NCBI RefSeq assembly: GCF_014836775.1
Contig: NZ_JACSQD010000001.1
Coordinates: 478,185 to 542,184, forward strand
Direction: 5' to 3'
From: Arthrobacter gallicola
GTDB lineage: Bacteria > Actinomycetota > Actinomycetes > Actinomycetales > Micrococcaceae
DNA: 64,000 nucleotides
Shown here: piece by piece, positions 59,676-63,027 of the stretch
Layout of the letters: the number at the start of each line of letters is the position of its first letter
Numbering within the stretch: the first letter of the stretch is position 1
Notes under the pieces: generated by a model
Seen by the model: only the letters and a program-made list of their open reading frames with translations
Databases searched by the model: none
What the model was told of the DNA's origin: nothing
Position numbers and translations under genes: made by a program

Positions 59676-61316
59676 TTGAACACCACGGCCCCGGCGAAAA
59701 GCCTGACCCTTTACCGCAACGGTTCTGTCTACAGCGCCGCCGATCCCTTCGCGACCGCCATGCTGGTGGACGGTGACACCATCGCCTGGGTGGGATCGGA
59801 GCACGCCGCCACCTCCATCCAGGACTCCAGCATGCGCGTGGTGGACCTGCAGGGCGCACTGGCCGCACCGGGTTTCGTGGATTCCCACGTCCACCTGACG
59901 GAAGCCGGCCTTGCCGAATCCTCCCTGGATCTCTCCGGGGCGCGGTCGCTCGCGGAACTGCTCGACGCCGTCGCTGCCGCAGCCCGCGATACAGCCGGCC
60001 TGATTACCGGCCATGGCTGGGATGAGACGGGCTGGCCCGAGGGCCGGGTGCCGACCGCCGCGGAGCTCGACGCCGCGTCCGGACAGCGCCGTGTTTATCT
60101 GGCACGTGCGGATGTGCACTGTGCGGTGGTCTCCGCGACGCTGGCGGCGGAGCTGCATCTGGCCGGGATGGACGGCTGGGACAACGGTTTTGTGATCCGG
60201 GCCGCCCACGATGCCGCCCGCACCGTCTCCCGGAATCTGAGCCTTTCCGAACGGGCCAGTTACCAGCGGGCAGCCCTGGACCTGGCGGCCTCCCGCGGAA
60301 TCGTTGCCGTGGCGGAAATGGCAGCACCTCACATCGTCCCGCCGGAGGACCTGCGGCAGCTGCTGGGCCTGGAAGGCAGCCTCGGAGCGGGGCCGGTGCC
60401 GCAGGTGCTTCCCTACTGGGGACAGCTGGTGCGCAGTGAAGCTGAGCTCTCCGAGGTGACCGATATGTTTAGCGGCCGGCTGCTTGGCCTGGGCGGAGAC
60501 CTGAACATCGACGGCTCCATCGGCGCCAGGACCGCGGCGCTCCGCGAACCGTATACCGATGCTCCCGAGACTTCCGGCAGCCTGTACCTCGGTGTGGAGG
60601 AAGCGGGGCGGCATATCGAACTGGCCACACGGGCCGGCCTGCAGGCCGGTTTCCACGTGATCGGAGACGCCGGACTGGATGCAGCCATCCGTGCCCTGCA
60701 GTTGGCAGCGGACGCCGTGGGGGAGTCCGCCGTACGCGCTGCCCACCACCGTCTGGAGCACGTGGAGCTGAGCGACGACGCAGCTATCTCCGAGTTGGTC
60801 CGTTTCGGTGTTACGGCCAGCATGCAGCCTGTCTTCGACGCGGTGTGGGGAGGCCCCGGCCGGATGTACTCCCAGCGCCTGGGATCCCGCAGCACCGGCA
60901 TGAACCGTTACGCTGCCCTGCTCTCGGCGGGTGTTCCGGTCGTCTTCGGCTCTGATGCTCCTGTAACGTCGCTGGACCCCTGGCGTACGGTGCAGGCCGC
61001 CGTGATGCATTCCTCTGCGCACGAACGGATTTCCGCCCGTGCGGCGTTCATAGCGCACACGCGGGCCGGATGGCGGGCTGCGGGGACAGGCAACCCGATG
61101 CTGGGCCAGCTGGCGCCGGGCACACCCGCGTCCTTCGCCGTGTGGGAGGCCGACGAGTTGATGGTCCAGACCCCCGATGCCTCCGTGGCGTCCTGGAGCA
61201 CGGATCCCCGGGCCGGAACACCCCTGCTTCCGGCGCTGGATACAGACAGCCTCCCACGGTGCCTGCAGACGGTGCACCACGGCGCCGAACTCTACCGTGC
61301 GCCCGATTTTAGTTAG
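59676..61316 (+). CDS. Amidohydrolase (YtcJ-like, amidohydrolase_3)
   Basis: A 546-residue metal-dependent hydrolase with a TIM-barrel. DSHVHLTEAG (near residue 68) gives the two N-terminal metal His, and GFHVIGDAG, HRLEHVELS and GSDAPV (near 430) the others. The substrate in the group is unknown; formamides, imines and long-chain amides have been proposed. It starts with a TTG at 59676 preceded by AGGTGAG. No signal peptide. The final codons and stop are duplicated in tandem (see 61299). In related genomes a lipoprotein N-acyltransferase gene may follow; here a non-coding stretch does. Confidence 0.85.
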   Translation: MNTTAPAKSLTLYRNGSVYSAADPFATAMLVDGDTIAWVGSEHAATSIQDSSMRVVDLQGALAAPGFVDSHVHLTEAGLAESSLDLSGARSLAELLDAVAAAARDTAGLITGHGWDETGWPEGRVPTAAELDAASGQRRVYLARADVHCAVVSATLAAELHLAGMDGWDNGFVIRAAHDAARTVSRNLSLSERASYQRAALDLAASRGIVAVAEMAAPHIVPPEDLRQLLGLEGSLGAGPVPQVLPYWGQLVRSEAELSEVTDMFSGRLLGLGGDLNIDGSIGARTAALREPYTDAPETSGSLYLGVEEAGRHIELATRAGLQAGFHVIGDAGLDAAIRALQLAADAVGESAVRAAHHRLEHVELSDDAAISELVRFGVTASMQPVFDAVWGGPGRMYSQRLGSRSTGMNRYAALLSAGVPVVFGSDAPVTSLDPWRTVQAAVMHSSAHERISARAAFIAHTRAGWRAAGTGNPMLGQLAPGTPASFAVWEADELMVQTPDASVASWSTDPRAGTPLLPALDTDSLPRCLQTVHHGAELYRAPDFS

Positions 61317-61360
61317 GCGCCGGATTTTAGTTAGGTACCCGATTTCGGTTAGGCACCCGA
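61299..61360 (+). repeat. 18-base tandem repeat with three in-frame stop codons
   Basis: Three 18-base units (61299-61316, 61317-61334, 61335-61352) plus eight bases. Each unit encodes APDFS or a variant and a TAG in the gene's frame. The first TAG ends the amidohydrolase; two more follow at 61332-61334 and 61350-61352. Later copies carry more changes. Confidence 0.85.
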
Positions 61361-61437
61361 AAAAGATTTCTCCGGTCCGGGACAGTCAATTGTGCCGCTG
61401 ACCTGCGGCAATGCAGTTTTGCCTAGTCAGCACCGTG

Positions 61438-61465
61438 TTGACACTTACCGCTCAGCACGTAGTCT
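61438..61465 (+). promoter_or_regulatory. Consensus-like promoter in the non-coding gap
   Basis: TTGACA (61438-61443), 16-base spacer, TAGTCT (61460-61465). This is the best -35/-10 pair that I see in the window. It predicts an RNA start near 61472, 335 bases before the next gene. Confidence 0.65.
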
Positions 61466-61471
61466 AGGTGA

Positions 61472-61603
61472 ACCGCAGCACGAACCGGCCTAGGCCGGAA
61501 TCGAGCTGCCACGGCCCGAGCACGTGTGTGTGGGGGGTTGATGGGCCTTCCGTCCATTTAAGGTGCGGGGTCATCAGTTGCAGCACATTGGGGTGGGTTC
61601 ATC
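61472..61603 (+). ncRNA. Candidate structured RNA upstream of the mannosyltransferase
   Basis: This part of the 490-base gap (61317-61806) has no convincing coding potential. Helices that can form: GGTGAACC/GGTTCATC (61467-61474 with 61596-61603), GCAGC/GCTGC (61475-61479 with 61505-61509) enclosing CCGGC/GCCGG, GGCCC/GGGCC (61513-61517 with 61543-61547) and GTGC/GCAC (61563-61566 with 61583-61586). Together they make a multi-branch junction closed by the first helix. The predicted RNA start falls inside that closing helix, so it may be shortened or the transcript may start earlier. It could be a leader or an sRNA. Confidence 0.35.
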
Positions 61604-61725
61604 CGTCAGTAGAAAACAGGCCTGGGACTCCCGGGACTGGCCCGAAGGCGGCGGAACCCGCCCCTTTGCCTGCCTGTGCCCACTCCGCTCCCGGAGATCA
61701 GGGCGCCCAGCGGTGCGGGGTCCAA

Positions 61726-61779
61726 TATACTGGTAATTCTGCCGCCGACACGGCAGTCCTCCGAGCCGCGAGCAGCGCG
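61726..61779 (+). promoter_or_regulatory. -10 box and two hairpins in the mannosyltransferase leader
   Basis: TATACT (61726-61731) would start an RNA near 61738. Then CTGCCG/CGGCAG and a nine-base stem CGAGCCGCG/CGCGGCTCG lie before the GAAAGG ribosome binding site. The hairpins may also act as attenuator for RNA from the upstream promoter. Confidence 0.4.
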
Positions 61780-61806
61780 GCTCGTGTTCGTTGAAAGGCC
61801 CTTTGC

Positions 61807-62535
61807 GTGCGCGTCCTGACCATCATCCCCACTTACAACGAGATCGAGTCGCTGCCCAAGACCCTCCAGCGGCTGCGGGCCGCCGTCCCGGATTCCGACG
61901 TCCTGATTGCGGACGACAACAGCCCGGACGGCACCGGCGCCTACGCCGACGAGCAGGCAGCGCGGGACCCTCAGGTCCATGTACTGCACCGCAAGGGCAA
62001 GGAAGGCCTGGGCGCAGCATATATCGCTGGATTCCGCTGGGGCCTGGAGAACGGGTATGACATTCTCGTGGAAATGGATGCGGACGGTTCGCATAAGCCG
62101 GAGCAGCTGCCGCTGCTGCTCGAAGCATCCAAGGCGGGAGCGGATCTGGTCATCGGTTCCCGGTGGGTCCCGGGCGGTTCGGTGGTCAACTGGCCCCTCC
62201 ACCGCAAACTTCTCTCCCGCGCCGGCAGCACCTATTCCAGACTGATGCTGGGAATCCGCACCCGTGACATTACTGCCGGCTACCGTGCCTTCCGCCGGAG
62301 CACGCTGGAACGGCTGGACCTGTCAGCTGTCGAATCCGTTGGCTACGGCTTCCAGGTCGATATGACTTTCCGGGTCGCCCGCATGGGCATGACCATTCAG
62401 GAAGTCCCCATCACCTTCGTTGAACGGGAGCTAGGCGCTTCCAAGATGAGCGGCAACATCGTCTTCGAAGCGATCGCCAATGTCACCAAGTGGGGCCTCT
62501 CCGCCCGGTGGCAGAAACTGACCGGCCGCGGGTAA
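61807..62535 (+). CDS. Polyprenol-phosphate mannosyltransferase (DPM1-type, GT2)
   Basis: Transfers mannose from GDP-mannose to polyprenol phosphate, donor for cell-wall and protein mannosylation. The 242-residue catalytic domain has [24 protein letters not shown], the DxD-like [14 protein letters not shown] (metal site) and the [18 protein letters not shown] loop. No C-terminal membrane helices are present. In mycobacteria the homologue Ppm1 is fused to an Lnt domain; here there is no Lnt part in the protein. It starts with GTG at 61807 after GAAAGG. Confidence 0.93.
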
Positions 62536-62542
62536 CCCGCAT

Positions 62543-62588
62543 AACAAAAGAACCGGCTGCCAAAAGATTGGCAGCCGGTTCTTTTGTT
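62543..62588. terminator. Bidirectional terminator between mannosyltransferase and rbpA
   Basis: A 19-base perfect stem (arms 62543-62561 and 62570-62588) whose A/T-rich base gives a T-run on both strands. The best terminator in the window. Confidence 0.92.
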
Positions 62589-62679
62589 GTTTTAGTTCAG
62601 TTCAGGGCGTCCGCGCCGGAACCGCTCACCAGTCCTGCAGCACAACCAGGGCGGCAGGGCACCAGCGCGCGGTTTCGCG

Positions 62680-63027
62680 CTAGGAGGCGGTACGCTCGCC
62701 CCGGCGCTCCCGCAGCTTGTCCAGGCGGTCCTGAAGAATCACTTCGAGTTCTTCGATGCTGCGGCGTTCCAGGAGCATGTCCCAGTGGGTGCGGACAGGC
62801 TTGTCATTGCTTGTGTCAGGCTTTTCGCCGTCCACCAGCAGCGCTTCCTTGCCGGTCTTGGACACCCAGACCGGGGGCACCTCTGCCTCCGCAGCAAAGG
62901 TCACAAACACGCGTTCGCCGTCTTCACAGCGGTACTCAACACGCTGGCGGGGAGCCGGCTCCACACCGGATTCCGTCTCCATGCTCTGCGCACCCAGACG
63001 CATACCCCGCAGGCTACGATCGCTCAT
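62680..63027 (-). CDS. rbpA: RNA polymerase-binding protein RbpA
   Basis: Actinobacterial protein that binds the sigma factor and RNA polymerase and stabilises open complexes. The 115-residue protein has the N-terminal tail with SLRGMRLGAQSMET, a beta-barrel (EYRCEDGERVFVTFAAEAEVP) with a single Cys, and the sigma-interaction helices (THWDMLLERRSIEELEVIL). AGGGAG lies ahead of the ATG. A SigR-like promoter at 63140-63165 reads toward it. It converges on the mannosyltransferase. Confidence 0.96.
   Translation of the reverse strand: MSDRSLRGMRLGAQSMETESGVEPAPRQRVEYRCEDGERVFVTFAAEAEVPPVWVSKTGKEALLVDGEKPDTSNDKPVRTHWDMLLERRSIEELEVILQDRLDKLRERRGERTAS

What the first reader, a model, noticed from the sequence alone, without database searches (positions are those of the whole stretch)
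61317..61806. Strong promoter and branched RNA fold in a 490-base non-coding gap
The gap between the amidohydrolase and the mannosyltransferase holds TTGACA-N16-TAGTCT, the most consensus-like promoter in the window. It is followed by sequence that can fold into a junction with helices at 61467/61596, 61475/61505, 61513/61543 and 61563/61583. No good protein frame is there. An abundant sRNA, or a long regulated leader, is possible. Weak point: the predicted RNA start (about 61472) is inside the first helix.
Basis: partly seen in the sequence, partly recalled or inferred. Interest (0 to 1): 0.6.

Follow-up and report, generated by a model that had tools for sequence, protein, structure and literature searches.

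The report
Widespread unlisted small RNA of actinobacteria
The gap holds the gene of a small structured RNA, absent from the RNA family library searched, that recurs with the same fold, promoter, control site and neighbouring genes in many distantly related actinobacteria; its job is still unknown.

Summary
The gap is an RNA gene, not spacer. The promoter TTGACA-N16-TAGTCT (61438-61465) is real. The RNA behind it (about 61471-61668, ends predicted) finishes in a long hairpin (61590-61664) with near-invariant internal loop strands (AGUAGANAAC / GGNCCGAAG). Covariance models built outward from this locus find it in 149 of 394 genomes of the class, in Streptomyces, Micromonospora, Nonomuraea, Kribbella and Nocardiopsis contigs, and in another class. 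Over 68 divergent members 93% of cells pair (shuffles 61%); covariation 0.783 against 0.218. No Rfam 15 family matches. A paralogue faces its neighbours. Best reading: a stand-alone, regulated sRNA working through its folded core, probably by binding a protein (inferred). Transcription was not observed.

The parts
61399..61429 (+). Palindromic element upstream of the -35: TGACCTGC (61399-61406), N15, CCTAGTCA (61422-61429); a diverged copy (3 of 16 mismatches, all in the right arm) of TGACCTGC-N16/17-GCAGGTCA. Probable binding site of an unidentified regulator
   Evidence: 100 of 139 non-redundant promoters carry it with <=4/16 mismatches (0.35 expected), 8 or 9 nt before the -35 in 97 of the 100; exact pattern searched without the RNA in 246 genomes (the window's own diverged copy is not matched by it)
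61438..61443 (+). -35 hexamer TTGACA of the RNA gene
   Evidence: sequence; promoter match at 160 of 216 loci with enough upstream DNA, 3.7 expected
61460..61465 (+). -10 hexamer TAGTCT (TAGGCT/TAGGTT common in relatives)
61471..61668 (+). predicted RNA; start inferred from the -10, end inferred from the hairpin plus TTT; neither mapped
   Evidence: inference for the ends
61475..61509 (+). 5' hairpin (GCAGC 61475-61479 / GCTGC 61505-61509), the one first-reader helix that holds; lineage-specific domain
61590..61664 (+). conserved core hairpin: P1 61590-61600/61654-61664, P2 61603-61607/61647-61651, P3 61617-61619/61637-61639, P4 61621-61626/61630-61635
   Evidence: covariation: 30 loci; 32 loci; 68 loci
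61608..61617 (+). 5' strand of the conserved internal loop, AGUAGAAAAC
   Evidence: [UC]AGANAAC in 68 of 68 aligned members
61639..61647 (+). 3' strand of the conserved internal loop, GGCCCGAAG
   Evidence: GGNCCGAAG in 46 of 68, GGN(1-2)CCAA in 15 of 68
61726..61731 (+). TATACT, likely own -10 of ppm, behind the RNA hairpin
   Evidence: kept in the genus alignment; TAnnnT >=5/6 between hairpin and ppm start in 74 of 132 loci, 7.9 expected
59676..61316 (+). amidohydrolase (PF07969), upstream neighbour
61807..62535 (+). GT2 glycosyltransferase, polyprenol-phosphate mannosyltransferase (ppm) type, downstream neighbour
   Evidence: PF00535; the name ppm is recalled
62680..63027 (-). rbpA, RNA polymerase-binding protein, convergent with ppm
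   Evidence: PF13397

Best explanation
61438-61668 is the gene of a stand-alone small structured RNA, one member of a family spread over Actinomycetota that Rfam 15 does not list. SHOWN by comparison: a strong sigma-A-type promoter; a palindromic site just upstream of it at fixed distance; a long hairpin kept by compensatory changes around an internal loop of near-invariant sequence; a lasting place upstream of lnt/ppm; and a separate promoter for the downstream gene in many loci. INFERRED: a dedicated regulator, more likely an activator (site centred near -58), binds the palindrome and sets the RNA level; the hairpin ends the transcript (U tract clear in some members, weak here); the invariant loop forms a fixed non-canonical fold (AGUA/GAA resembles a bulged-G motif, recalled) that a protein binds; the RNA acts in trans through that protein.
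For: Covariation: 68 members, 93.0% of cells paired against 60.6% in shuffles, score 0.783 against 0.218, slid copies at most 0.154. Strand: 145 G-U against 28 A-C cells. Promoter 160 of 216 loci, 3.7 expected. Palindrome 100 of 139, 0.35 expected, spacing fixed. The palindrome pattern searched on its own hit 47 of 246 genomes, the backward-read control 9; of the 30 loci returned, 24 lie upstream of this RNA (21 by motif; L284, L310, L311 by the coordinates). Separate units: in lnt-led loci TAnnnT 5-8 nt before an in-frame start in 22 of 73, control windows 2-7; in ppm-led loci a peak at 30-33 nt, 42 of 132, the six other control windows 3-9, the 5-8 nt window 13. Paralogue: 4HBT thioesterase on the upstream side (L063, L276, L281) and a facing ABC-transporter or ANTAR-regulator gene behind it; in L276 TTTTTT follows the hairpin. 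L179: RNA followed directly by convergent rbpA, no lnt or ppm found (a metagenome bin, start of a 4.5-kb contig). No Rfam family.
Against: No transcript was seen. 56 of 216 loci lack the promoter match and 39 of 139 promoters lack the palindrome. A downstream promoter was not found everywhere: 58 of 132 ppm-led and 31 of 34 scored lnt-led loci lack a -10 of >=5/6 (32 of the former have TATGGT, 4/6), L026/L077-type loci show none by eye, and 51 of 73 lnt-led loci do not look leaderless. The near-fixed downstream neighbour is also what a cis-acting element would show. In the window only TTT follows the hairpin. No partner protein, regulator or phenotype is known.
Confidence: 0.68

Rival explanations
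1. Cis-acting leader or attenuator of the lnt-ppm unit: transcription from 61472 ends at the hairpin or reads through into lnt/ppm, depending on a ligand or protein bound at the internal loop.
For: lnt or ppm is the next known same-strand gene in 109 of 116 and 96 of 105 loci, whichever of the two comes first, while the upstream gene varies more (amidohydrolase, helicase, or neither found). Hairpin plus U-rich tail looks like a terminator in some members. Some loci (L026, L077) show no promoter behind the hairpin.
Against: Own, at times leaderless, promoters behind the hairpin in many loci; a paralogue whose next gene faces it; L179 keeps the RNA without lnt/ppm. The neighbourhood (helicase, amidohydrolase, lnt, ppm, rbpA) is itself conserved, which weakens the argument from linkage.
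Confidence: 0.22
2. RNA polymerase-binding RNA of the 6S/Ms1 kind: a long hairpin with an internal bubble that binds core or holoenzyme.
For: Apparently stand-alone, strong promoter, hairpin with bubble. 6S is described as missing from Actinobacteria (PMC9130861, abstract).
Against: No 6S match in Rfam at E<=10. RIP-seq in S. coelicolor reports two RNAP-bound RNAs, scr3559 and scr0792 (PMC11077062, passages); whether S. coelicolor has this RNA was not checked. The bubble is short and looks structured rather than open. Ms1 lies beside a HAD hydrolase.
Confidence: 0.06
3. Base-pairing sRNA acting on mRNAs in trans.
For: Apparently stand-alone unit; the variable 5' domain could hold lineage-specific seeds.
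Against: The conserved residues are the two strands of an internal loop inside a helix, not a free seed; the 5' domain varies strongly in sequence and length between lineages.
Confidence: 0.04

Closest known systems
Ms1 RNA / scr3559 (Actinobacteria)
   Same: structured RNA in an intergenic region of actinobacteria with lasting gene order
   Different: different neighbours (HAD hydrolase / oxidoreductase, PMC9130861, passages); no Ms1 sequence was compared here; protein partner of ours unknown
6S RNA (Rfam RF00013, number recalled)
   Same: stand-alone hairpin with internal bubble
   Different: no cmscan match at E<=10; short near-invariant loop
Lnt motif RF01711 (Weinberg 2010)
   Same: an RNA motif named for the lnt gene
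   Different: listed for Chlorobi (PMC2864571, passages); no match to our loci at gathering scores
livJ motif, Streptomyces (PMC11109978)
   Same: actinobacterial motif next to branched-chain amino acid transport genes, as our paralogue is near ABC-transporter genes in L277 and L279
   Different: described as a leader with the ribosome site in a bulge of P1 (passages); our paralogue faces those genes; the motif's alignment was not available here

Membership tests
6S RNA | match to the covariance model | tested here: not met
   cmscan of 61300-61830 against all 4227 families at E<=10: three chance-level hits, none 6S
6S RNA | binds sigma-A holoenzyme, templates pRNA | not testable with these tools
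   needs pull-down
Ms1 RNA | beside HAD hydrolase / oxidoreductase genes | tested here: not met
   neighbours are amidohydrolase and ppm; Ms1 gene order from passages of PMC9130861
Ms1 RNA | sequence or structure similarity to Ms1 | not tested
   no Ms1 sequence fetched
Any Rfam 15 family | score at or above gathering cut-off | tested here: not met
   window and 33 loci (20, 13): three tRNAs, nothing else
Stand-alone sRNA | own promoter | tested here: met
   160 of 216 loci, 3.7 expected; promoter-like sequence, not activity
Stand-alone sRNA | own 3' end before the next gene | tested here: inconclusive
   T 49% and 46% in the first two columns after the hairpin, 10-46% in the next twelve; strong U tract only in some members
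Stand-alone sRNA | next gene transcribed separately | tested here: inconclusive
   signal in a part of the loci: 74 of 132 ppm-led with a >=5/6 -10 behind the hairpin (7.9 expected), 3 of 34 lnt-led (0.9 expected), 22 of 73 lnt-led leaderless-type (controls 2-7)
Riboswitch / cis leader | always in the 5' UTR of one set of genes | tested here: not met
   holds by position for 205 of 221 loci, but the paralogue's next gene faces it
Transcribed RNA at all | detected transcript | not testable with these tools
   no RNA-seq at hand

The most novel reading that the evidence does not exclude
A phylum-wide housekeeping ribonucleoprotein RNA of Actinomycetota, previously uncatalogued, with its own dedicated transcription factor (a 32-bp palindrome found mostly at this gene) and a partner protein recognising the invariant loop; it ties lipoprotein acylation and protein mannosylation (lnt/ppm) or transcription (rbpA) to a signal not yet known.
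Probability: 0.3. Interest if true: 0.92.

Novelty: new variant of a known kind. Interest (0 to 1): 0.78.

Why it matters
Rfam 15 has no family matching this RNA although it occurs in Streptomyces and many other much-sequenced genera. The finding supplies a covariance model, a promoter, a probable regulator site and an invariant loop that can be tested at once in laboratory Streptomyces or Arthrobacter strains. If it binds a protein, the near-invariant loop makes a pull-down straightforward; if it acts in cis, it would be a new controller of lipoprotein and mannosylation genes.

Tried and rejected
Known family (6S, Ms1 or other): rejected by cmscan and, for Ms1, by gene order alone. Small protein: frame not kept, no Pfam. 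Palindrome as an RNA hairpin or upstream terminator: among the 25 commonest deviations from the consensus only one kind (2 cases) is the same in both arms, so a protein site fits better. Strict coupling of hairpin to the ppm promoter: the distance varies by eye from about 12 to over 60 nt. A second copy in the window's own genome: only an E = 5.55 match, taken as chance. Genus g102 (my guess: Mycobacterium, unnamed in the output): 0 of 31 genomes at E<=1; this shows absence only at this model's sensitivity. Regulator gene through second palindrome sites (7 loci viewed): no candidate by eye, no family search run on them. Literature: nine searches brought up no description of this RNA; supplementary tables were not open to me, so an unnamed entry in a Streptomyces sRNA list is possible.

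Rows dropped before counts: repeat fetches and near-identical loci L017, L019, L020, L031-L033, L068-L070, L076, L078. One search gave 80 matches for 54 loci, 26 of them on the opposite strand of close relatives (a hairpin resembles its own complement); alignment A3 was therefore not used, and A4 and A5 were made from chosen loci and cut-offs (32 and 68 loci) so that one match a locus remained. One search scored only loci whose spacer was 25-450 nt (132 ppm-led, 34 lnt-led). Shuffles keep single-base composition only.

Full report
WHAT IS THERE. The gap 61317-61806 lies between an amidohydrolase (PF07969) and a GT2 mannosyltransferase-type gene (PF00535, ppm), with rbpA (PF13397) convergent further on. 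Rfam finds nothing in the gap, even at E<=10, beyond chance hits.

CONSERVATION. A DNA search hit 31 of 59 genomes, the own included, 28 of 29 in the genus. All 30 loci returned (28 of the genus, two of other genera) have an amidohydrolase and a ppm match around the gap. Aligned gaps show islands: an upstream element, the -35, the -10, a hairpin near 61590-61664 and, further on, ATATACTGG, the likely -10 of ppm. Between the islands sequence and length vary freely.

THE HAIRPIN. P1 (61590-61600/61654-61664), P2, an internal loop, P3 and P4 form one long irregular hairpin. On the 30 loci 96.7% of cells pair, and the covariation score (0.305) exceeds all 500 shuffles (mean 0.157) and all slid copies (at most 0.097). 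A covariance model from these found 32 of 297 genomes of the order. Members added from other families raised the score: 94.7% paired, 0.736 against 0.217. With 68 members, including another class, it is 93.0% and 0.783 against 0.218. One measure does not separate there: the number of pairs with any double change (23) is reached by 192 of 500 shuffles. The alignments were fitted to the models, so they lean towards the structure; the first (used) was not. E-values of these models are rough (short calibration). The loop strands are near-invariant: [UC]AGANAAC in 68 of 68, GGNCCGAAG in 46 and GGN(1-2)CCAA in 15 of 68. AGUA facing GAA resembles a bulged-G (loop E) motif; this is recalled, not tested.

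SPREAD. R2: 10 of 396 genomes of the phylum (strict filters, 10 candidates a genome scored), 61 of 120 of the family and 19 of 32 genera, 13 of 39 in the genus of G670 (E<=0.05), 9 of 27 in another class (E<=0.05). R3: 149 of 394 of the class, 62 of 138 genera, where about 4 would be expected by chance at E<=0.01. One large genus (g102, name not given) had 0 of 31.

GENE CONTEXT. In 109 of 116 loci and 96 of 105 further loci lnt or ppm follows on the same strand. Of the 9 others, six end 36-843 bases behind the RNA, L215 is at a contig end, L137 is the paralogue described below, and L179 has rbpA directly behind the RNA. The seven exceptions come from outside the class, where four other loci (L062, L064, L065, L106) do have lnt; one of the seven, L107, ends 185 bases behind the RNA.

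SEPARATE UNITS. Behind the hairpin many loci carry a second -10: TAnnnT of >=5/6 to TATAAT in 74 of 132 ppm-led loci where 7.9 are expected, but in only 3 of 34 scored lnt-led loci (0.9 expected). For lnt the signal is instead TAnnnT 6-7 nt before an in-frame start, the leaderless arrangement: 22 of 73 loci at 5-8 nt, control windows 2-7. For ppm there is a peak at 30-33 nt (42 of 132; other windows 3-9, 5-8 nt 13). So the next gene is often transcribed on its own. This is not shown for every locus, and in L026- and L077-type loci no such promoter is visible.

PARALOGUE. Several genomes hold a related second RNA, or this form alone (L063, L102-L105, L273, L276, L277, L279, L281; L137 is the same site as L281). 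In L063, L276 and L281 a 4HBT thioesterase is on the upstream side; a gene behind the RNA and facing it is a transporter gene (L063 binding protein; L102, L105, L277, L279) or an ANTAR response regulator (L273, L276); positions. For L103, L104 and L281 no facing gene was named. Four of the ten have TTGACC-N17/18-TAnnnT (L273, L276, L277, L279) placed so that the RNA would begin near the hairpin; L276 has TTTTTT behind it. A leader of those facing genes cannot work there. No such second copy stands out in the window's own genome.

REGULATOR SITE. Upstream of the -35 lies TGACCTGC-N16/17-GCAGGTCA: 100 of 139 non-redundant promoters with at most 4 of 16 mismatches, 0.35 expected; distance to the -35 is 8 or 9 nt in 97 of these, spacer 16 or 17 in 96. 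Arms deviate singly, as in a protein site. Searched alone as an exact pattern it hit 47 of 246 genomes, the backward-read control 9. Of the 30 loci returned, 21 have the RNA core within 520 nt and L284, L310 and L311 coincide with R3 matches; the other six do not lead to this RNA. The window's copy (61399-61429) has an exact left half and a diverged right half. The centre near -58 suggests an activator (inference). No regulator was identified.

MECHANISM. Shown by comparison: promoter sequence, palindrome, fold, loop, place, frequent own promoter of the next gene. Inferred: transcript ends, trans action, protein partner, activator. The strongest rival is a cis attenuator of lnt/ppm. It explains the fixed neighbour well but not the own promoters, the paralogue or L179.

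KNOWN WORK. PMC9130861 (outline, abstract, passages), PMC11077062 (passages, section 27), PMC2864571, PMC11109978, PMC3765725, PMC8388888 and PMC11678152 (passages found by term only) and PMC2422843 (terms without occurrence) do not describe it in what I saw. PMC5737381 was not held. Sequence-word and topic searches brought up nothing on it (listings and abstract beginnings seen). Supplementary tables were not open, so 'not described' is limited to this.

CHECK.

Noticed in passing
61302-61360: 3.3 tandem copies of an 18-nt unit (CCCGATTTTAGTTAGGCA) run over the end of the amidohydrolase gene into the gap; the copies behind the stop codon are absent from the gaps of the relatives aligned.
   Followed up: partly
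61762-61784: A strong hairpin (CGAGCCGCGAGCAGCGCGGCTCG) in the presumed ppm 5' UTR just before the ribosome site, kept in the nearest relatives; could be a control element of ppm.
   Followed up: no
62543-62594: Long inverted repeat with flanking A and T runs between ppm and rbpA, probably a two-way terminator (seen by eye).
   Followed up: no
L273:1343-1981 and L276:1492-2097: The paralogous RNA sits next to an ANTAR response regulator (Pfam), a family that binds RNA (recalled; PMC8164766 abstract beginning); a possible partner, untested.
   Followed up: partly
L100:1344-1750: About 400 nt between RNA and ppm in this Streptomyces-like locus, with long inverted repeats, looks like a small mobile insert (by eye).
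   Followed up: no
L314:2001-2032: A second exact palindrome lies upstream of a gene for a proline-rich protein with a leaderless-type -10 (by eye); perhaps another gene under the same regulator.
   Followed up: partly
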